Below, one piece after another: positions 537 to 64,000 of a stretch of DNA of 64,000 bases. Under the pieces are notes generated by a model. That model was not told where the DNA came from. It saw only the letters and a program-made list of their open reading frames with translations, and searched no databases. A program made the position numbers and the translations under genes. The stretch is from Megaustenia siamemsis (taxonomy: Eukaryota > Mollusca > Gastropoda > Stylommatophora > Ariophantidae), in assembly GCA_032433765.1 (NCBI GenBank), contig JAVIAB010000092.1, forward strand, positions 102,450,064-102,514,063. Reading direction: 5' to 3'. Each line of letters opens with the position of its first letter. Positions within the stretch are counted from its first letter, which is position 1.

Positions 537-26208
<25,672 letters not shown>

Positions 26209-44024: not shown

Positions 44025-44523
44025 GCTAATGTAATATAATATAATATAATATAATATAATATAATATAATATAATATAATATAATATAATATAATATATA
44101 TAATATAATATAATATAATATAATGTAATGTAATGTAATGTAATGTAATGTAATGTAACGTAACGTAATGTAACACAATACAATACAATACAATACAATA
44201 TAATAATAATATAATAATAATATAATACAATATAATATAATATAATATAATATAATATAATATAATATAATATAATGTAATGTAATATAATATAATATAA
44301 TATAATGTAATGTAATGTAATGTAATGTAATGTGATGTAATGTAATATAATATAATATAATATATAATATAATATAATATAATATAATATAATATAATAT
44401 AATATAATATAATATAATATAATATAATATAATATAATATAATATAATATAATATAATATAATATAATATAATATAATATAATATAATATATATAATATA
44501 ATATAATATAATATAATATAATG
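44025..44523. repeat. Pentanucleotide (AATAT)n array, about 500 bp
   Basis: taata repeats with blocks of taatg, taacg and acaat variants. Two copies carry a two-base slip (atatata) at 44095 and 44490. Confidence 0.96.
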
Positions 44524-51974: not shown

Positions 51975-52364
51975 AAAAACAATGAGAAAGAGAGTTCATT
52001 GGTGCTATATAGAACCAATTCTGACCTATGGAAGCGAATCATGGACAGTAGACAAACAAATAAAAAGACGATTAGAGGCCACAGAGATAGGATTTATCAG
52101 AAGAATGTGGAAAGTTCCCTGGACAGCTAAAAAAGACCAATGAGGAAGTTCTCAAAGAGGCTAACACAAAAAGGGAGCTCTTAAAAAACATCAGAAAGAA
52201 GAAATCAACATTTTTCGGGCACATCATGAGAAGAGGAAAGTTGGAATACTTGGTTACAACTGGCAAAATAAAAGGAAAGAGAGATCGCGGACGACAAAGA
52301 GAGAAAATACTGGATAGCTTGGTGTCATGGCATGGAAAACAGTCAACAACAGAACTGATACGAT
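51975..52364 (+). mobile_element. LINE family A 3' fragment, cut by Polinton
   Basis: Homologous to 1395-1780 and 13245-13625 (MRKRVH-type start, RRMWKVPWTAK, then gaaaatactggatagcttgg). Stops matching the other copies at ctgatacgat|, exactly where the Polinton begins. Confidence 0.92.
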
Positions 52365-53157
52365 AGTAGTAGACCAGGAGGGAAATGGTCTTACTTTTTT
52401 AGTTGACCAAAGAGTAGGGTATATCCTACGAAGTCCAGTACCCTTCAAGTACAAGAGTTATATAGTAGGATACCACCACTTTCCCATGGTGGAAGGTGGT
52501 GGTGGTGGTGGAGCTTCTGTCATGATATATATGTATACATGTATATGAATAGGGCTTGTATAGTGCATGAAGGGATGGGTTGTTGATTACTGAGTCATGT
52601 ATTGGACATCAGTTTTTCCCGCCAAAGTGACTTCCAATAGGAGCTAGTGTGTGTGTATGTTGTCCGGCTATAGACCACGCCCACTCCGGAAGTGAAACTA
52701 CCATATTAGGGAGTAGTGATACGTTAGTTATTTCATAGTTATGGTGAGTATATATATACATATAATAGTAATAGTAATAGTAATAGTTATTATATCTAAG
52801 TGGACGTAAATGGGCCCCGTATTTAAGATATGGACCATAAGTAGGTATATATACATACATATATATTGGCAAATCTTGCTGGCGGTATTAACGAACAGTC
52901 ATTTTCTCCTACCGTGGCAGCTCAATATCTCCCACCGTTGCCGCTCTCGCGTGAGTTTAATGATTATTGTCTCCAGCGAGCGCGAAACGCAACAAGTTGT
53001 GTAAACTAATGAGCGAGCTGTCTCGGTACGCGGTTAGCAGACAATAAGACATAGGTTAATAACAATACTTATGGTCTCGATACGCGTATAGTGTTATCAA
53101 ATAAGGCTCGTAAGTTATAAAATAACGACATAAATCTACCTCGCGACAGTCGTAGGT
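52365..53157 (+). repeat. Polinton left terminal region (inverted-repeat candidate), no gene
   Basis: 793 bp before the ATPase start. It holds a tggtgg-rich stretch at 52490-52512 and a short (tag)n at 52765-52785. The extent of the terminal inverted repeat cannot be set without the right end. Confidence 0.7.
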
Positions 53158-53772
53158 ATGGATCCAACCTGGAATCATCCGTTTACGGCGCTAGTCGCAG
53201 GACCGACGGGATGCGGAAAAAGTGTGTTTGTTAGGCGCTTTATCGACCACGTGTCAGAAATGATCAGACCCGCTCCGGAGGAAATAATCTACTGTTACGG
53301 CGAGTGGCAATCGATGTACGATACGATGAAGGGTGTTCAGTTTAACGAAGGGCTACCCGACATGGAGCAATGGCGAGGAGATAGGACACGTCTGTTGGTC
53401 ATAGACGATCTGATGAACGAAACCGACGATAGGGTCACGAAACTATTTACCAAGGGAAGTCATCATAGAAATATAAGCGTCGTGTATATAGTACAGAATC
53501 TCTTTAGCAAAAACAAGGAACAGCGGACGATAAGTCTCAACAGTCATTACATAGTTATGTTTAAAAACCCGAGAGACGGGTCTCAGATTACGAATCTGGC
53601 CAAACAAATGTACCCGGGGCGCGTGTCGTACGTGCAAGAAAGTTTTAAAGACGCGACATCGGCTCCACACGGGTATTTATTAATTGACCTTCGGCAAGAG
53701 ACACCGGATCATCTAAGGCTGCGCACAAATATTTTTCCTAAAGAACAGCAGGTAGTCTACATCCCAAAATAA
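53158..53772 (+). CDS. Packaging ATPase (FtsK/HerA, A32-like)
   Basis: 204 residues, intact. Pumps genome DNA into the capsid in related viruses. Walker A GPTGCGKS at residues 15-22; Walker B LLVIDD at 79-84 with two acids; a sensor-like VVYIVQNLF at 108-116. The short length and the position of the P-loop close to the N-terminus are usual for Polinton enzymes. The start is the ATG after an 800-bp noncoding leader, with no in-frame ATG upstream. Stops five bases before the next ORF. High-confidence assignment; activity inferred from family only. Confidence 0.96.
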   Translation: MDPTWNHPFTALVAGPTGCGKSVFVRRFIDHVSEMIRPAPEEIIYCYGEWQSMYDTMKGVQFNEGLPDMEQWRGDRTRLLVIDDLMNETDDRVTKLFTKGSHHRNISVVYIVQNLFSKNKEQRTISLNSHYIVMFKNPRDGSQITNLAKQMYPGRVSYVQESFKDATSAPHGYLLIDLRQETPDHLRLRTNIFPKEQQVVYIPK

Positions 53773-54104: not shown

Positions 54105-54566
54105 ATGGCCAAGAAAATGATTTTGATAGATCCTCGACTGGTAGAGTCTGTAAATCACCACCAAGTCGCGTATACGCCACCCGAGTCACTAAAAGACACC
54201 CTAGGAGATCTGGATACGCAAATGCAACGAGTCCTGGAAAGAGAGGACATGTCACCACGCGACAAAGCCAGAATGTATCAGCAGACATTGCAACGGTATC
54301 TGCAACGTCTCGATCAGTACAGACACAAACCTCTAGGCGTAGTGGACATTAAACAGGCACCCCCATCCCCCGACGCGATTACAACACCACCAACCGCGGT
54401 ACTTAAAGACGAAGTCGACGAAAAAATTCCTCAGTCAGCGCCAAGCGCGCCTAGGCCGAAAACGAAAGCGGTCACTCACAAAGAAGTTGTGGGCAAGTAC
54501 AGGCTCAGGAAAAGAAGAAAAAGTAAAATTCCAAAACCAAACTGGGAGTCATGGCCAAACGAGTAG
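54105..54566 (+). CDS. Polinton hypothetical protein, alpha-helical then basic
   Basis: 153 residues. Residues 27-70 are helix-prone (TLGDLDTQMQRVLERED, ARMYQQTLQRYLQRL); the centre is Pro-rich and low complexity; the C-terminus is basic (KYRLRKRRKSKIPKP). No catalytic motif. The last 16 bases overlap the integrase start. Function unknown; a virion or DNA-binding role is only suggested by charge and by the company it keeps. Confidence 0.78.
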   Translation: MAKKMILIDPRLVESVNHHQVAYTPPESLKDTLGDLDTQMQRVLEREDMSPRDKARMYQQTLQRYLQRLDQYRHKPLGVVDIKQAPPSPDAITTPPTAVLKDEVDEKIPQSAPSAPRPKTKAVTHKEVVGKYRLRKRRKSKIPKPNWESWPNE

Positions 54567-55637
54567 ATAAGATTTTAAGAAGCCGTTACTACGATCCGAA
54601 TCGACCGGGTGCCTACGGGGGTGTGGGTGGTTTACAGCGTAGTACAAAACTAAGCTCTGCAAAAATTAAAGAATGGCTGAGTCTACAGGATGCTTATACG
54701 CTACACAAACCCGTTGTTAGAAAATTTAAGAGACGACCCATCATCGTGGGTGGTATGAATCAGCAGTTCCAGGCTGATCTGATCGATCTGAGACAATTAA
54801 GAAGATAGAACGACGCGTTCTCGTATCTCGTTACGTGTATCGACGTTTTTGCGAAGTATGCTTGGGCAGTTCCGATACGGTCGAAAACCGCAAAAAATCT
54901 AGTGGAGGCCGTGAGCGAAATATTTGCCGAGCGCAAACCGATACATCTTCAAACGGACAAAGGATCCGAATTCGTCAACAAAACTTTCCTAAAGTTTCTC
55001 AAGGAAATGGAGTCCATTTCTTCACTACGGAGAACGAGGATATAAAGGCAGCGATCGTAGAACGATTTAACCGAACGTTAAAAGAGAAAATGTGGAAATT
55101 TTTTACGAAAACGAACAAATTGAGATATGTGGATGCGTTACCCGCCTTACTCAGAAACTACAATAATTCGTATCACAGGAGCATTAAAATGGCGCCGGTC
55201 CACGTAAATTCGGCCAATCAAGAACAAGTCTGGAACATGTTGTATAATAAACTATCGGGGAGAGACAATAGACAGTCAGTGGCGATCAATAACCGTTATA
55301 AAGAAGGTGATCGAGTTAGGATAGCTCAAGCCAGAGCTAATTTCAAAAAGGGTATACACCAGCGTGGACGGAAGAACTGTTTACAATCAGTCGTGTAAAC
55401 AAAAACACTAACCCGGTAACCTACGTTGTGAAAGATGATTCTGGTGAAGAGTTGAAAGGGTCGTTTTATACAGAAGAGCTTCAGAAAGTCGGCGAAAAAC
55501 GGGTGTATCGAATAGAAAACATCTTAGAAGAGAGGAAAGTTGATGGAAAAAAACAGTACTTAGTCAAATGGTACGCTTACAGCTCGGCATTTAACACTTG
55601 GATTTTGAGCGATCAAGTATCGAGATACAGAGACTGA
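54551..55637 (+). CDS. Polinton integrase (DD35E, chromodomain), three lesions
   Basis: Retrovirus-like integrase that inserts the element. Segment 1 (54551-54805) has the N-terminal YYDPNRPGAYGGV, WLSLQDAYTLHKP and the first catalytic Asp in FQADLIDL. A TAG at 54806-54808 interrupts it, but the same frame goes on with NDAFSYLVTCIDVFAKYAW and reaches QTDKGSEFVNKTF (second Asp, codon 54956). A one-base change in the aaa at 55005-55007 moves to the frame with VERFNRTLKEKMW (Glu, codon 55060; 35 codons after the Asp once the base is counted). A second, in A5 at 55345-55349, leads to the chromodomain YRIENILEERKV...YLVKWYAY (55499-55637). The long ORF start at 54835 is out of frame and not real. 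Confidence 0.92.
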
Positions 55638-55641
55638 CGAA

Positions 55642-55947
55642 ATGGAGGGGGATGAACACGTGCAAACTTTTCTGAGTGCAGTAGTTGAAAGAGAAGAAAC
55701 GAAGAACGACGAAGGGACCAGTCATGATAGCAGAACCTCACTCTGGCCTGTTTTCGGTAAACTGCTCCCGCGAATGGAAATCGTTTTTCTCTGCCAAATG
55801 ATCGTTATATATGCCGTAATCGGCGTGGCTTTATTTAATCTGACGGGTGGAAACGGTGAGGGTCAGGACGGAAAGATTTGGATCGCGCTCCTGAGCAGTT
55901 GTCTGGGTTACATGCTTCCAAATCCCAAGTTAGAGACGAGACGATGA
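55642..55947 (+). CDS. Polinton small membrane protein
   Basis: 101 residues with an acidic N-terminal tail, then two hydrophobic stretches: FLCQMIVIYAVIGVALFNL (about 49-67) and IWIALLSSCLGYMLPNP (about 79-95). Short two-segment membrane proteins of this type lie near the capsid genes in other Polintons. Starts four bases after the integrase stop. No enzymatic motif; role in envelope or entry is unknown. Confidence 0.8.
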   Translation: MEGDEHVQTFLSAVVEREETKNDEGTSHDSRTSLWPVFGKLLPRMEIVFLCQMIVIYAVIGVALFNLTGGNGEGQDGKIWIALLSSCLGYMLPNPKLETRR

Positions 55948-55957
55948 AACAAGGAAG

Positions 55958-56712
55958 ATGAGTTTTTACATCACAGCCCCCAGCAACGCTTCGATGCAAA
56001 TTTATCCTGAAAATAGTCCTGGAAACTTTTTCGTCAAACTCCCTCAAACTATCGAACTAAACGCAAACTACGAAGTCGGTTTGGCCGAGATACAATTTCC
56101 AAACACTCATTTCAACGTCCTACCCGGCGATATCTGGATCCGTTACGAAGCTTCCGGTAACACAGCAGTAACAATGGAACTGGCGCCGGGGTTATACAAT
56201 ACAGCGGATAACTTTATCGATGCTTTAAATAAAGTGATTTTGGAAAAAACACCCGGCGTCAATATGAGATTTTTTTATAAAAAAAACGAAAATAAGGCCA
56301 TCTTTAAAGTCGTTGAACAAGGAGCCTCGGTTACCATAAGCGAGGAATTGAAAAGTATCTTAAGCTTCACATCGAATCGCGTGACAGACGCTAACGTGGC
56401 CCTACACGGCGAGAAAGAAATAAATTTGGAAGCTCAAACTAGAAACGTGTATGTCTATTGCGATCTAGTGTCACCCAGAGTGGTGGGGATGTTCTGGTAC
56501 CCTTACTGAGGACAGTTCCTATTTTGGAGAAAACCACCACATCCATATTTCGCATCTACGACAAACCGCACTATGTCCCCCTGAGCAGGTTCTCCTTCGA
56601 CAGGTTAGAAATTCTTTTAACTAACGACAGGGGAGTTGCGATACCATTTACATCCGGAACGTCGGTACTGACGTTACATTTCAGAGCGCGGAAGCACTTC
56701 GATCTGGTATAA
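55958..56712 (+). CDS. Minor capsid (penton-like, single jelly roll), one frame break
   Basis: The first frame (55958-56509) begins MSFYITAPSNASMQIYPENS, with NYEVGLAEIQFPNT as the recognisable strand pattern. The second frame carries on with VLVPLLRTVPILEK, YDKPHYVPLSRFSFDRLEI and LTLHF to 56712. The switch lies in gggg at 56485-56488 and needs one base. Total about 250 residues, the usual size. The stop codon TAA overlaps the next ATG (taatg). Confidence 0.9.
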
Positions 56713-57197
56713 TGGTGAGACACACGCCGCTTCATCGAAATGCTAAGTTATACGAAGAGTGTTGCTTTAATCAAGCCGGCCACGGCCTCCCGGTATTTGT
56801 CGGAGGTAGAAGTCAGCGAGGTCGCGGTATCGGAAGTTTTTTCGGAGGCATCGGAAGAGCAATTTTACCGTGGCTAAAAACAGGTGGTAAGGCATTACTC
56901 AGAGAAGGTGTCGGCACGGGACTACAAGTCGCGCAAGACGCATTGGCGGGAAGAAACATTGGAGAGTCGTTTAAAGAAAGAGCTAAGGAATCCGGTCAGC
57001 GTTTAATTCAGGGAGCCATCAGTCATCTGGCCGGTGGCGATACAGGCCAACAAACCGGAAGCGGTAGAAGAAGGAAAAGACGAGCAGCTCCACCTGGGAT
57101 GCCGGCAAGAAGAATAAAAACGACAAAACGACACGATCACTCTCATTCCGCGTCCAAGAAGGCTAAGAGGACAAACTATTCGGACATATTCGGTTAA
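56712..57197 (+). CDS. Basic virion protein, pX/pVI-like
   Basis: 161 residues. Starts at the ATG overlapping the penton stop. N-terminal CCFNQAGHGLPVFVGGRSQR, then a glycine-rich amphipathic stretch GIGSFFGGIGRAILPWLKTG, and a strongly basic C-terminus with GRRRKRRAAPPG and SASKKAKR, a likely nuclear localisation signal. By position between penton and major capsid, and by composition, it matches the adenoviral core/minor protein class of Polintons. Assignment by analogy; likely processed by the protease. Intact. Confidence 0.82.
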   Translation: MVRHTPLHRNAKLYEECCFNQAGHGLPVFVGGRSQRGRGIGSFFGGIGRAILPWLKTGGKALLREGVGTGLQVAQDALAGRNIGESFKERAKESGQRLIQGAISHLAGGDTGQQTGSGRRRKRRAAPPGMPARRIKTTKRHDHSHSASKKAKRTNYSDIFG

Positions 57198-57202
57198 GCG
57201 AT

Positions 57203-58512
57203 ATGGCGTTAGTGCATCCCAAGTCTTGCGAGTGTTTCCATTCTGGACTAGATTTGTTTAGCGTTCCACCGACTCAGACATCTCTTGATTCTGCCCAGTT
57301 TGTAGAAGTTTCCCCCTTGGCGTCTCTGGCATCTGGGGCCCCTATAGAATTTTCCATCAGCGGAAATTCGGACGAATACATCGATTTTTCCAACACGTAT
57401 CTGCATATGAGAGCAAAAATTACGCTGTCCAACGGTGACAATATACCAAATGATGTTGAAGTTGCGCCTGTGAACTATTTTCTGCACAGTCTAATCTCGC
57501 AAGTCGACGTATCTCTCAACGATACTTTGATTTCAGCTTCTGAAAACACCTACCCTTTTCGAGCATACCTAGAAGCCACTCTCAACCATAGCAAGGAATC
57601 TAAGAAAAGTTATCTCACGAGCGCGCTCTACTACACCGATACTCCCAAACACGCGGATGACACCCAAGGTGACTCCAATGCGGGTCTTAAAACTCGTCGA
57701 AATCTGGCCCGAGGTAGCCATGAGCTGGATATGATAGGGCGACTTCACTCTGATATTTTTGCTCAGGAGCGTTACATGCTAAACAGGGTTGACGTGAAAA
57801 TTAAGTTGACCCCCTCAAAGGACGTATTTAACATCATAGCTCACGACAAAACTGTCGGTTATAAAAGTGTCATCACCTACGCCGCCCTGTTGGTGAGGAA
57901 AGCCTCAGTTAATCCGGCCATTTCGCTGGCTCACGAAAAGGCTCTCTTACGAGGCAATGCGCGATACCCATGAAGAGAGTTATGATTAAAACATTTGCCA
58001 TTCCTAAAGGCATGTTATCTCATTCCCAAGACAATCTTTTTCTGACTCAAACACCAACGCGACTAGTCCTCGGCTTACTGGACTCGGCTGCATTTAATGG
58101 AAGTTACGACACCAACCCCTTCAATTTTAAAAACTTTGGCCTTACCTACTTAAACATCACCGTCGCCGGTCATAGTATTTGGGGTAAACCTCTATCTACC
58201 GAATTTGACCGCGGTCAGTACGCTCGCGCCTACTTCAAGTCCATGTTGGCGTTGGGTCTTGTGGGAACAGACGCTGGTAACGGAATAGATTATAACGACT
58301 TCAAGAACGCCTACACTCTTTTTGCATTCGATCTCAGCCCTGGTCTTTTGAACGCCGAACAATTTGAGCTGGCAAAATCAGGGCCCGTCGCCATCGAGCT
58401 CAAATTTGCGACGATCACGCCTAATCCTATACAGGTCCTAGTTTACGCAGAACTGGATTCCGTGGTGGAGATCTCTAAAACGAGACAGATTCTTACAGAT
58501 TACACAGCGTAA
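57203..58512 (+). CDS. Major capsid protein (double jelly roll), one frame break
   Basis: The N-terminal half (57203-57969) has CECFHSGLDLFSVPPTQTS, FVEVSPLASLASGAPIEFSI and YFLHSLISQVDVSLND, the characteristic Polinton hexon-like start. The C-terminal half continues in another frame from 57970 (IKTFAIPKGMLSHSQDN, NPFNFKNFGLTYLNI, SPGLLNAEQFELAKSGPV). The switch is in ccc at 57967-57969 and is explained by one missing base. Total about 436 residues. No internal stop otherwise. The separate downstream ORF starting at 57970 is not an independent gene. Confidence 0.93.
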
Positions 58513-58523
58513 ACACTTCGACA

Positions 58524-59018
58524 ATGAATACGAGAGATATTCTCAAAGTACTTATGTCTGATATTTTTGTGAGACGGTGTTCCATTGTTAGCGTAGTGGC
58601 TCGCAATCGGTTACCTCGCTATATCGATCCAACTAAAACAGCAGCCTTCGTTATCAATACAGATCCCAGCTATCTACCTGGCTCTCACTGGGTCGCCCTC
58701 TACTACAACGCTATGGGGCAGTTTGAGTATTTCGACAGTTTCGGGTTTTCTCCCAGACATACCGAGATCATCGATTTTATCGAGCGGAATTCGAACAGAC
58801 CTCTCATCTACAACTCGCGTCAGTTACAAGATCTTGTTAGTAACGCGTGTGGACTGTACTCTGTGTATTTTCTACTGATTAAAACACGAGGAGGATCAAT
58901 GCAAAGGGTCTTAATGCCGTTTACCTCATCCACCAGACAACACATAAACGATCGAATCGTGTATCGACTACTAGCACCGAAGCTTGTGTCGCAAAATTTA
59001 AAATTTCTAGTGCAATGA
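58524..59018 (+). CDS. Adenovirus-type cysteine protease (maturation protease)
   Basis: 164 residues, intact. Cleaves capsid and core precursors in related viruses. Catalytic set visible: His55 in GSHWVALY, Asp71 in FEYFDSFGF, Gln102 in QLQDLVSN and Cys109 in NACGLYSVYF, the order and spacing of the Ulp1/adenain family. Begins 11 bases after the capsid stop. Its TGA stop forms the first bases of a palindromic CRE. Confidence 0.96.
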   Translation: MNTRDILKVLMSDIFVRRCSIVSVVARNRLPRYIDPTKTAAFVINTDPSYLPGSHWVALYYNAMGQFEYFDSFGFSPRHTEIIDFIERNSNRPLIYNSRQLQDLVSNACGLYSVYFLLIKTRGGSMQRVLMPFTSSTRQHINDRIVYRLLAPKLVSQNLKFLVQ

Positions 59019-59023
59019 CGTCA
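59016..59023 (+). promoter_or_regulatory. CRE/ATF site (TGACGTCA)
   Basis: Perfect 8-bp palindrome overlapping the protease stop codon, 88 bp upstream of a TATA box. CREB/ATF factors bind this sequence; adenovirus early promoters use ATF sites in the same arrangement. Confidence 0.75.
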
Positions 59024-59110
59024 GTGGCTAAAAATATCGCAGACAAGTCTGGACACGAATTTTAGTGTTTAAAAATCCGGACTAAACCGGATCTATAATC
59101 TGACCTATGC

Positions 59111-59118
59111 TATAAAAG
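59111..59118 (+). promoter_or_regulatory. TATA box for PC4-domain gene
   Basis: tataaaag, 60 bp before the ATG at 59171. Initiation near 59141 (gtcacac) would give a leader of about 30 nt. It is the clearest core promoter in the element. Confidence 0.78.
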
Positions 59119-59170
59119 TCGCGGGTGAGAAAGCGCCAGTCACACATCGCTCAGTGCTGAGATACAGAAG

Positions 59171-59926
59171 ATGCTGACAAACGGCGAGGCTGCACCAGTT
59201 GTCGATGTACCCACTCGCTGGGTCTACGTTACAGCAGCTCGTGAAATGGTCAAACCATTGGCTACAGGGCTGAAAGTAGCGTCCGTGTCTTCATACAGAG
59301 GGTCGACTATGATCCATATTCGAAAATTTTTCGGGACATCGAATTTAAAATATCCCACCAAGTATGGGATCACGTTGAATCGTTCAGAATTTGAACACCT
59401 CGTGTCTATGCAGGACGAGTTATTGGCCGAGTATGAGCGTCTCGAAGCCATTGCAACAACACTCGAGACTCATACAGTGAACGAACCCGACATCAGACTA
59501 GATCACACACTTCCAGTATCCACGTCGCCGAGTATCGAGCCATATTCCATAAATACTGGCTTTTACATGGCTCCTTTCTACGATACTGACAACTTCGAAA
59601 GTAGTCAGCCAATACCAGAACTATCTCCGGGTCATCTTAGTAGAAACGAACAGCTCGTGGCTATGCAGGACGAGTTATTGGCCGAGTGTGCTCGTCTCGA
59701 GGCTAATGCAACAACACTACAGCCTCTTCCCTCGAACGAGCCATCGACCACGGCAGATCATAGACTTCCAGTATCTACATCGGCATGCAACCAGCCTTAT
59801 TCGATAAATAATGGTTCTTACAGGACTCCCGTGTACGATACTGACAACGTTGAAAAGATTCAACCAATAACAACGAGTGCCCCTGGTCATCTTAGAAGAA
59901 GAAAGAGGCTGAGGCTGAACATTTAG
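59171..59926 (+). CDS. PC4-domain protein with internal tandem duplication
   Basis: 251 residues, intact. Residues 34-85 resemble the PC4/p15 ssDNA-binding fold: KVASVSSYRGSTMIHIRKFF, then KYPTKYGITLNRSEFEHL, with the PTKxGIxL loop and basic strand preserved. After it come two copies of an about 84-residue unit: LVSMQDELLAEYERLEA...PGHLSRNEQ and LVAMQDELLAECARLEA...PGHLRRRKR, each with LPVSTS, PYSIN and YDTDN. The C-terminus is basic. PC4 proteins bind melted or single-stranded DNA in transcription and replication, so a single-strand-binding or promoter role beside a protein-primed polymerase is plausible but inferred. Own CRE/TATA promoter and poly(A) signal. Confidence 0.83.
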   Translation: MLTNGEAAPVVDVPTRWVYVTAAREMVKPLATGLKVASVSSYRGSTMIHIRKFFGTSNLKYPTKYGITLNRSEFEHLVSMQDELLAEYERLEAIATTLETHTVNEPDIRLDHTLPVSTSPSIEPYSINTGFYMAPFYDTDNFESSQPIPELSPGHLSRNEQLVAMQDELLAECARLEANATTLQPLPSNEPSTTADHRLPVSTSACNQPYSINNGSYRTPVYDTDNVEKIQPITTSAPGHLRRRKRLRLNI

Positions 59927-59989
59927 ATGTTGTGTTTTAATGTCGTGTCTAGATGTACTGCATGAGCAGTATCGGTGTTGTGTTGTATC

Positions 59990-59995
59990 AATAAA
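59990..59995 (+). terminator. Poly(A) signal AATAAA
   Basis: AATAAA 64 bp after the PC4-domain stop, with a tgtcatttatgtgtacg GT-rich stretch downstream. Fits the end of the plus-strand unit, or of the whole rightward gene block. Confidence 0.75.
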
Positions 59996-59999
59996 ATAT

Positions 60000-60343
60000 A
60001 TATAAATTACAAAACATGCCTCGTGTTATTTGTCATTTATGTGTACGTATATAATGGATTGTATAGGTGTGAAAGTCATAGATGTTGTAACTCGTTTTTT
60101 CTGTTTTACACACAGGTATACTGGTAGTACACCAAGGATACTGAGAGTATCCATATTATTCTTACGAGACAGTACCACGTGACATGTATATACAATAGAA
60201 AAAAACTGCATACTTTTTTAATGATATATTTTAATACAATATAAACGTGACAACGACACAAACATATGTTCATTATCACTGGACATAAATCTATCACAGA
60301 AGTATCATTGTATATATACATAATATATATATATATAAATACT
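60000..60343. other. Intergenic meeting point of convergent units
   Basis: 344 bp, AT-rich with (at)n at 60318-60338. No gene. Short minus ORFs here have no match. Confidence 0.6.
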
Positions 60344-63300
60344 CTAGATACCTAACGGAAAAGTCGTCACATTGTCGTTGTGCACACGGCGTTTGATGTA
60401 GAAATAAGAGAGAGAATTTCTGTGCTGTGTATATGTATAGACACTCGATTTATATCGTTTAAAACCCACATTTTTCCCTCCCTGCGCCTGTTGTGTCTTG
60501 AGAACCTTCATAAATATATCTTTGTCTAGTTTATTGTGATGTTTGCTAAGCCCTTTAGTACTAGTTTTTGAGTAATCTCCAAAACAGTGGTATGTTTTAC
60601 TACATAACGATACCATCCATCCCCTTCGTACTCTAACTTAAATAAACCCGGGGTACGTTTATGGTACAATTTTGTTTTTTCGCAGTCTCGACAAGCTACC
60701 TTAAATTTACCTTTACTCCTAACAAACTCCTCCCGATGAACGCTACAGTCTCTGAGGGGAACCACTGATCGTACTCGTTATAAAAAGTTTCGAGTAAAGG
60801 CGGTCTAACGGCGGCAGCTAAACTAGGTTTACTTAACGCCAAATACAGACTGTCAGTGTCCATTTCACACAACTGAAAGTATGATCTCTCTACGAACCGG
60901 TCTAAAAAATCGTAATAAAATTGCAACATCCGTAGCTTGGCGTATTGATATACAAAGTAGCCGATTTGTAGCGGAAGGTCCCACCTCGTCGTCTTTTTAA
61001 CATTTCCACCTCGAATATATTCCCTACTCCTAAATCTGTCATATGTTTAAATAGGGGGTCGTTAACGAGCTTGGAAGCGGACTCACCCTCGCAGTACGCG
61101 ACGTTCGAGTGTTTCGCTTTATCGGTGAGAGTTTTTCCGTACGCCGAATTCCCTAACAACTTCATGGTCTCCCCCGTAATGGACTGCGTCTCATCTACAT
61201 CCCCTTTTCGTCTGGCGTCGGATACGGTATCCCCAAATTGTTTGAAACAACTAACAGGGTGGTATTCGATCACCTGGTAGATGTTGGTTACCTCTAGATC
61301 GTGATCCAAATACCATTTTAATAAGGGGGTGGCCAAAAGAATTTTCTTCCCGATATAACTACCTATCAGGGTACGTCTAGGGTCGTCAATAATTTATTTT
61401 TCACGGCGTATTCCTTCATAAGCTGTCCTATATCGTCTCTACACACGTCTACGTTTTTAAATATGGGTGTCATTTCGCTAAATATTCCTTGAGAGAGTCG
61501 GGGACATGAATATCGCATTCTACCAGACCAAACAGCGTTTCGTCTTTAACAGCTTTCAAGATCTGCGCGACGGTTAGTGGTAATTTTTCCCGGCATACGA
61601 TGGTTTTGCTCTGGGGAGGGCTTGTTTAAGAAACGGAATAATTGTGCTGTCGGTTTTCTTTAGCTCTTGCCACTCACATTCCCACATCTCAACCACGTCA
61701 ACTCCAACATCGTTGGTTAAATATTCGCGAATTTCCCGGTCTTGTCGTATAGCTCGGACAAGGGTTTTTTTTTATAGGGTTAACACCTTTGTGTTTTTCA
61801 GTGAGGTGACAGATATGGCCGTGCGTCAGACAACCATGATACTGCCAGACTTTATTATTAGCGGATAGGTTACTCTTTTGACAGAAGCCATCCACTCTAA
61901 TCCTACGAGGTCCTAAAGGTACCTCACCCCCGTTGTATTGAGTTCGCAACTCAATGTTGTGTTTGTGAGCTACCCACGTTAACCACTCTCTACTCTGCTG
62001 ATCGTAATAATTAACTTTACGTTGTCTAAACCCGTCCTCAACTTTTCGTATAATTGGAAAGTCAGTGGCATTTTCTGCATCAATGCCCAGAGATACAGAG
62101 CGTTTGCGTCGTAGCCTTTAAGACTCTCTACTACATTTTGAGGATTACCTCTGATTCGAGTCTCGTCCTTCTCGTGGTGGCGATGAAAGATTATGCTCGG
62201 ACCACCCACTATATTATCTCTAAGCGTTTTATGAAGCTCCGCCTCGCGTTTACCGCATAACGAAAAGACTACGTTTTTAGGTATGGTGTTGAAGAGGTAT
62301 CTTAACGTCACACCGGGGACTGAAATGGCGTCCTTAAACATATCTACACCTAAACCCGCGTAAAATTCGATCTGTTTCTCTAATGCGAGTAGGAAGGGCC
62401 CGACATCCTTGTTGTTATACCAAACAAGAAGATCTCTGAGAGTGGACATGTTATTGTCCGCCCATATCTTGTTACAATACTCGTACTCTTCGTTTGAAAT
62501 ATTACAGTTTTTAAGCGTCGAAAAGAAGGCCTCATGAGGGGGAGAGAGGTTTCGTCTAACTTTTTTAGATTCGTAATATACTCGTAACAAAATACACCTT
62601 TGGTCTCTTTAATCTTGTACGCTGCCAAGTATTTACTATAAGAGAACCCCGGGGCGAGATAATTTATAATATCTAAGAACTTTAGTCGACTGGTGGAGAT
62701 GCACATAAAATTATTATTGCGCTTAACGATAAACTTGAAGGGCGAGGTCACCCTTTTTTAGTTTTGTTTTGTTTCGGCCCTTCTTCCTCTTCTTCTTCAT
62801 CTTCTTCTTCATCGTCATCATCTTCTTCATCGTCATCTTCTTCATCGTCATCATTTTTCAATTCTTCTTCAACGTCATCTTCTTCACCTTCATCATCTTC
62901 TTCGTTCGCTTTTTCTACTTTGTTCGCCCCAGCTACGAAATGTCTTATTAAATATGGTTTGATAACGTTTAAGTCATACTTTCCAGAGTTGAACCCTATA
63001 ACGGGGAGCTCTTTCAAGTATGCCTCGAGTTTCCCTATGAGGTCACTACAGTCACCCCTGTCTCTTAAACTGTCAAAAACCTGTTTGAAACTGCCGCGTA
63101 AGATTATATACGACCGTTTCGCTAATGTCTCTAGATAATCTATCATTTTACTCACTAATTTTTGAGAATCACCTTCGCTCACAAAACATACCGGTTTTTC
63201 ATAACCAGGAATATTACTGGCTACGGCACACGACATTGGAATATGCCTGGCTACATATTCGGTCACACTACTAGTGTTTCCATCTGTCGTCGGTACATTA

Positions 63301-64000
63301 CTAAAGTAACATTCATAATCGTACGTCGCTCTGTAGGGATACACGTAATTATTAGGAACTTCTATACCCCTATTAGCTATCGTTTCGAGTATACCCTCTT
63401 TGTTCCTATAAACTCCTCCGATATACTTGTCTTTTCGCTTATCCCCGTACATGTCTTCTCGTGTCTACCCATATCCCAACATTCTTTCCACAATTTTCCA
63501 CATTTAGGACACGAAAAAGCATGGGCCGCCTTATCTATGTCCGCTATATACATAAAATGTTCTTCGTAAAATAGAACTCGTAAGGTGTCGCTAAAAGTCG
63601 TACTACCTCTTAGCATTGGGGACAGGGCTTGTTCTTTGTCAAAAGCGAAGACGTCCACGTTAATACCGAAACACTTTTCTAGAGAGGGAATCTGCGCTAA
63701 CGTTACACCCGGGAACTTGTCGTCAATATCTAAACCCTGATGGTCTTGCCACTGTTTCAGGAGATCGCTGGTGGGTCTGTGTAAATTACCGAGATTAGCA
63801 CCCTAAATAACGCTACACATCTAAAGAAACAGAGATTATCAGTATATGCTGGCCCGTTTATGTTATTTTGTAATGTATAAATGAATTTATTGTTTGTAAT
63901 GTGTTGTGGCAGGTCGGTGGTTAGACACCCGATAGGATATTCTACGAAATGATAGTGATAGAACGAAGTGCTGGGAATGGTTTCGACGCTATATTTAGTG
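60344..64000 (-). CDS. Protein-primed DNA polymerase B (Polinton), many frame breaks, 5' end outside window
   Basis: Replicates the element; family B with N-terminal exonuclease. Motifs run in order on the minus strand: NLCFFRC (about 63840), CPKCGKLWKECW (about 63500), Exo I YDYEC (63320), Exo II GFNSGKYD (62996-62973), an Asp/Glu-rich insert (62903-62770), LDIINYLAPGFSYSKYL, palm motif A GYDANALYL (62116), motif B KLLGNSAYG (61162-61136), motif C DTDSLYL (60860) and the C-terminus YKSSVYTYTQ to stop at 60344. Frame switches lie near 60610, 60738, 60993, 61380, 61473, 61613, 61765, 62031, 62539, 62754, 63443 and 63801. No in-frame nonsense codon is needed between them. All core catalytic residues are kept. 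Confidence 0.93.
62770..62905 (-). repeat. Asp/Glu codon-repeat insert in polymerase B
   Basis: Plus strand is ttcttcatcgtcatc-type trinucleotide repeat. The minus strand encodes about 40 acidic residues (EEDDEGEEDDVEEE, DDDEEDDDEEDDDDEEEDEE) between Exo II and the palm. Confidence 0.9.

What the first reader, a model, noticed from the sequence alone, without database searches (positions are those of the whole stretch)
54551..63803. Sixteen Polinton frame breaks are almost all single bases missing from short homopolymers
Integrase (A3 at 55005, A5 at 55345), penton (G4 at 56485), capsid (C3 at 57967) and twelve sites in polymerase B all restore register if one base is added to a run of identical bases; only the T9 run at 61765 needs a different count. 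Polymerase B shows no nonsense codon despite 12 shifts, and catalytic motifs are intact. Neutral decay should also produce stop codons, so under-called homopolymers in the assembly are a strong alternative. The element may therefore be intact and recent.
Basis: partly seen in the sequence, partly recalled or inferred. Interest (0 to 1): 0.78.

Follow-up and report, generated by a model that had tools for sequence, protein, structure and literature searches.

The report
Homopolymer undercalls in a repeated Polinton
A young virus-like mobile element in an animal genome looks riddled with reading-frame breaks, but its sister copies suggest that these are mostly assembly errors, while one stop signal in its integrase gene looks like a genuine mutation.

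Summary
Compared with 20 other copies of the same Polinton in this genome, the window copy is one base shorter at 17 sites: integrase 2, penton 1, capsid 1, polymerase B 13. Sister copies are longer in 296 of 302 site-by-copy cells, yet the copy has only 5 private substitutions. 14 of 17 losses are G/C. Losses do not track substitutions: 8 of 16 full-length copies have none, four have 8-17. A sister copy has a stretch with two-way indel noise. Fourteen host frames with cadherin matches are open over 915-2466 aa. Best explanation (0.8): homopolymer undercalls that polishing could not reach in a near-identical repeat. No reads were seen.

'Recent' is supported: 6-bp target duplication, inverted repeats with 2 mismatches, 9-22 substitutions in 9.5 kb to the four nearest copies. 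The proposed short-read test would be confounded by multi-mapping.

The parts
52359..52364 (.). left copy of the 6-bp target site duplication (the right copy lies beyond the window, in L029)
   Evidence: same six bases on both sides of the element
52365..53005 (+). left terminal inverted repeat; the right one is L029:3365-3998, beyond the window end
   Evidence: 641-column match, 2 mismatches, one 1-base and one 6-base gap
53134..53769 (+). packaging ATPase frame (stop to stop), open
   Evidence: Adeno_IVa2 E 8.5e-6, over cut-off
54527..55634 (+). integrase with chromodomain, broken: two one-base losses and one nonsense codon
   Evidence: rve and Chromo matches in pieces; losses; nonsense
54806..54808 (+). 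in-frame nonsense codon in the integrase, private to this copy
   Evidence: 20 of 20 other copies differ at this codon
   Evidence: no Pfam family except a sub-cut-off match
57203..58509 (+). major capsid protein gene (label from reader and recall), one one-base loss
   Evidence: two frames against relatives; loss
58479..59015 (+). adenain-type protease frame, open
   Evidence: Peptidase_C5 E 7.8e-8
59129..59923 (+). PC4-domain frame with an internal 255-nt duplication, open
   Evidence: PC4 E 2.9e-9; repeat
60347..64000 (-). polymerase B, part inside the window (continues into L029), thirteen one-base losses, no in-frame stop in the pieces tested
   Evidence: family by homologs

Best explanation
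This is one copy of a young, high-copy Polinton family. Its 17 frame breaks are mostly or wholly residual one-base undercalls of a long-read assembly. They persist here because, in a near-identical repeat, polishing reads are placed on sister copies that already match them. The copy is nevertheless not shown to be intact, because a separate private substitution puts a nonsense codon in the integrase. Shown: the breaks, their privacy and common direction, their G/C bias, their lack of relation to substitutions, a noisy stretch in a sister copy, long open host frames. Inferred: the sequencing and polishing cause.
For: Window shorter at 17 sites, 296 of 302 site-by-copy cells; six of the sites in 35 aligned copies of 39: 204 of 210 cells. 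17 losses against 5 private substitutions. Losses over 16 full-length copies: 0 in eight, then 2, 3, 4, 5, 8, 14, 15, 17; heterogeneous against substitutions, 0 of 10000 shuffles. Two clean sister copies differ by 21 substitutions and two multi-base gaps in 10 kb. The copy on C1 has a clean left part (6 mismatches, 2 gap openings in 2.1 kb) and a right part with 58 gap openings, both directions, and 17 mismatches in 3.3 kb; its own two inverted repeats differ by 14 gap openings, the C51:65.3M copy's also by 14, five other copies' by 0-2. Fourteen host frames with cadherin matches are open over 915-2466 aa. Polishing failure in repeats is described in PMC8812927 (passages).
Against: No reads were seen. 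The window copy's losses are one-way, unlike the two-way noise of the C1 copy. Run-length dependence does not separate undercalling from slippage. The flanks of the insertion could not be tested (search unanswered). The cadherin control is selected for long frames; 4 of the 150 listed matches hold a stop and some neighbouring matches have short frames.
Confidence: 0.8

Rival explanations
1. The losses are real and arose in a burst when this copy was made, by slippage of the element's own polymerase outside host mismatch repair; heavily hit copies are single bad replication products.
For: Losses without substitutions and their unevenness among copies fit a burst at birth; one-way loss; 14 of 17 in G/C; rate rises with run length.
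Against: Patchy placement: 13 of 17 in the polymerase part, p 0.0017, none in the left 2.1 kb against the nearest copy. Two-way noise with little substitution in a sister copy is hard to make by slippage.
Confidence: 0.1
2. Ordinary decay after insertion.
For: One private nonsense codon exists; single-copy substitutions are nearer to neutral (56 synonymous, 87 missense) than shared ones.
Against: 17 one-base losses to 5 substitutions, while eight of 16 full-length copies have substitutions or none and no such losses.
Confidence: 0.08
3. Programmed frameshifting joins the pieces.
For: A slippery site has been suggested for some adintovirus penton genes (PMC11071296, passages).
Against: The breaks are private to this copy at 17 sites; polymerase B is one open frame in 5 of 20 other copies.
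Confidence: 0.01

Closest known systems
Polinton/Maverick elements of animals (vertebrate set of PMC8097293, passages seen)
   Same: Inverted repeats, AGT-type ends, 6-bp target duplication, about 15.1 kb, rve integrase with chromodomain, ATPase, adenain-type protease, polymerase B
   Different: A mollusc-like host by nearest proteins; this copy's integrase has a nonsense codon
Adintoviruses (PMC11071296, passages seen)
   Same: rve integrase with C-terminal chromodomain, adenovirus-like protease and ATPase; a weak Bcl-2-like frame (the paper says that most mammal-associated species appear to encode anti-apoptotic homologs and/or candidate oncogenes)
   Different: The OTU-like N-terminal polymerase domain was not specifically tested; C2H2 fingers were found there
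Residual homopolymer error in repeats of long-read assemblies (PMC8812927, passages seen)
   Same: One-base run errors that cause frameshifts, concentrated in repeats because reads prefer error-free instances
   Different: The paper treats bacterial genomes; reads and platform of this genome are unknown

Membership tests
Polinton/Maverick | terminal inverted repeats with AGT-type ends | tested here: met
   641 and 634 bases, ends AGTAGTAG
Polinton/Maverick | 6-bp target site duplication | tested here: met
   TACGAT on both sides
Polinton/Maverick | rve integrase | tested here: met
   rve E 1.7e-11 and Chromo E 3.4e-8 in window pieces
Polinton/Maverick | protein-primed family B polymerase | tested here: met
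   1719 homologs, many of the 120 listed with PF03175; direct Pfam, PHROG, NCBIfam and PDB scans showed no polymerase family; protein priming itself not tested
Polinton/Maverick | packaging ATPase and adenain-type protease | tested here: met
   Adeno_IVa2 E 8.5e-6, Peptidase_C5 E 7.8e-8
Polinton/Maverick | jelly-roll major and minor capsid proteins | tested here: inconclusive
   328 homologs of the capsid piece but no Pfam or PDB match that names it; no fold was made; labels from reader and recall
Adintovirus | OTU-like N-terminal domain of polymerase B | not tested
   only Pfam was run on the N-terminal piece; no OTU family among the 20 listed
Residual homopolymer error | disagreement between reads and assembly | not testable with these tools
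   no reads are held
Residual homopolymer error | private one-base run differences independent of substitutions | tested here: met

The most novel reading that the evidence does not exclude
The losses are real and record the fidelity of the element's own replication: a polymerase copying outside mismatch repair leaves some daughter copies with a burst of one-base contractions in short, mostly G/C runs and almost no substitutions, so that many copies are born dead.
Probability: 0.1. Interest if true: 0.65.

Novelty: not a real feature. Interest (0 to 1): 0.22.

Why it matters
A recent, near-identical virus-like element can be scored as degraded when the decay belongs to the assembly, so counts of intact Polintons in long-read genomes may be too low in the youngest, highest-copy families. 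The opposite trap matters too: excusing the frame breaks does not make a copy intact, since a nonsense codon lay among them. The usual remedy, short-read mapping, is least reliable in such a repeat.

Tried and rejected
Scans of viral contigs with a polymerase piece, the capsid piece and a capsid alignment found no relative. I first took the difference between the two inverted repeats for seven one-base losses; inspection showed one 1-base and one 6-base gap, so that argument was dropped. Run length does not separate undercalling from slippage. Family and PDB scans of polymerase B named no polymerase; homologs did. A search for papers with Polinton, frameshift and homopolymer found 0 in the held open-licence library. 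Searches for repeats in the flanks and for cytochrome oxidase stayed unanswered.

Full report
What is there. The window is C91:102450064-102514063 of a 2.59-Gb genome in 155 contigs. The nearest named proteins are from molluscs (Pomacea and Littorina for the capsid; Bradybaena, Pomacea, Littorina and others for the polymerase). The element has a left inverted repeat at 52365-53005, a right one at L029:3365-3998 beyond the window, ends AGTAGTAG and TACGAT on both sides, so it is about 15.1 kb. Pfam on the pieces finds ATPase, integrase with chromodomain, protease and PC4 protein; polymerase B, on the other strand, is placed by homologs.

The breaks. Capsid relatives align in two frames. Seven polymerase relatives, chosen from 120 listed, align in a succession of frames. 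Twenty of the 39 other places scored were fetched over window 54.5-64 kb. At each site 16 to 20 of them cover it. The window is one base shorter than at least 75% of covering copies at 17 sites, 296 of 302 cells; a stricter count without merging gap placements gives 15. By gene: integrase 2, penton 1, capsid 1, polymerase 13. For six polymerase sites, 35 of 39 copies aligned and 204 of 210 cells are longer.

What was missed. Integrase codon 54806-54808 is a nonsense codon, made by a substitution that none of 20 other copies shares. It is one of five window-private substitutions: 2 synonymous, 2 missense, 1 nonsense. Other copies have 0 to 29 private substitutions, so five is ordinary, which suggests a real mutation; a base error is not excluded. 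As 3.8% of random substitutions would be nonsense, the absence of stops in polymerase B says little.

Why assembly error is favoured. (1) Losses do not follow substitutions. In 16 copies with full coverage (the window and 15 others), private one-base losses are 0 in eight, then 2, 3, 4, 5, 8, 14, 15 and 17; against substitutions this is heterogeneous (chi-square 65.3, 12 df; 0 of 10000 shuffles). The window's 17 is the merged count, the others are strict counts. Five copies of incomplete coverage were left out; they have 0, 0, 3, 0 and 2 losses. Some copies share substitutions with a sister, which lowers their private counts. (2) Two clean sister copies differ by 21 substitutions and two multi-base gaps in 10.0 kb. 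(3) Quality varies along and between copies. The copy on C1 differs from the window by 6 mismatches and 2 gap openings in its left 2.1 kb, but by 17 mismatches and 58 gap openings, both ways, in its right 3.3 kb. Its two inverted repeats, which control for each other, differ by 14 gap openings; so do those of the copy at C51:65.3 Mb; five other copies, the window included, show 0 to 2. (4) Fourteen host frames holding cadherin matches are open over 915 to 2466 aa, 17,033 aa in all. At the window copy's density (17 in 8037 coding positions tested) a 2.7-kb frame would hold about six breaks. This control is selected for long frames; 4 of the 150 matches listed hold a stop and some neighbouring matches lie in short frames, so it shows only that the density is not genome-wide. 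(5) PMC8812927 (passages) describes the mechanism: reads prefer the error-free instance of a repeat, leaving the erroneous one unpolished.

Against. No reads were seen. The window's losses are one-way, the C1 copy's noise two-way. Slippage by the element's polymerase could also give one-way losses in short runs without substitutions. The patchy placement argues against it but does not exclude it: 13 of 17 lie in the polymerase part (p 0.0017); in the left 2.1 kb the window lacks nothing against its nearest copy and one base, in a tract that varies both ways, against two others; in the right 3.5 kb it lacks about three, judged against two copies and its own left repeat. The flank test did not complete.

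Age and activity. The window differs from the four nearest copies by 9, 11, 20 and 22 substitutions in 9.5 kb, and its inverted repeats from each other by 2 mismatches. At a recalled rate of 2-4e-9 per site per year this is some hundred thousand years. Forty places, the window included, were scored at 99% or more on a 1-kb probe out of 844 first-look candidates. Frames at 95% or more of the longest are found in other copies for integrase 16, capsid 12, protease 19, PC4 18, polymerase 5 and penton 5 of 20 (frames clipped at the gene bounds, and copies lacking a region count as not open). Shared substitutions outside the subfamily split are 93 synonymous, 74 missense and 1 nonsense; subfamily differences 33 and 50; single-copy ones 56, 87 and 2; the neutral share of synonymous is 26%. 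This fits lineages kept functional while spreading and relaxed after insertion.

Verdict. The breaks are confirmed, one more than reported. Assembly undercalls are the best explanation (0.8). Recent: supported. Intact: not supported.

Noticed in passing
L029:2267-2938 (+), inside the element beyond the window end: A frame with a weak Bcl-2 family match (E 4.5e-5, 24.4 bits, below the 31.4 cut-off), possibly an anti-apoptotic gene carried by the Polinton.
   Followed up: partly
L029:260-1666 (-): C2H2 zinc fingers at the N-terminal end of polymerase B; many listed homologs also carry C2H2 families.
   Followed up: partly
window about 56279: A long A run in the penton-like gene is 7 to 10 bases in 15 of 20 copies and the window where the probe matched; it varies also among copies without other losses.
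   Followed up: partly
window 59393-59900: The PC4-domain gene holds a 255-nt tandem duplication, 76% alike.
   Followed up: no
window 62780-62903: A low-complexity TCT/CAT tract encodes an acidic Asp/Glu stretch within polymerase B.
   Followed up: no
L021 and L024 (C51:35.59 Mb and C1:61.38 Mb): These copies have the same coverage, substitution and indel counts against the window and no private substitution, which suggests very recent relatives on two contigs.
   Followed up: no
L035, L036 and L037: Two sister copies carry stretches with many gap openings in both directions, of use for judging this assembly's local quality.
   Followed up: partly
window 12034-12861, 14149-14959 and 44027-44522: Very long tetra- and pentanucleotide arrays, ordinary in a repeat-rich genome.
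   Followed up: no
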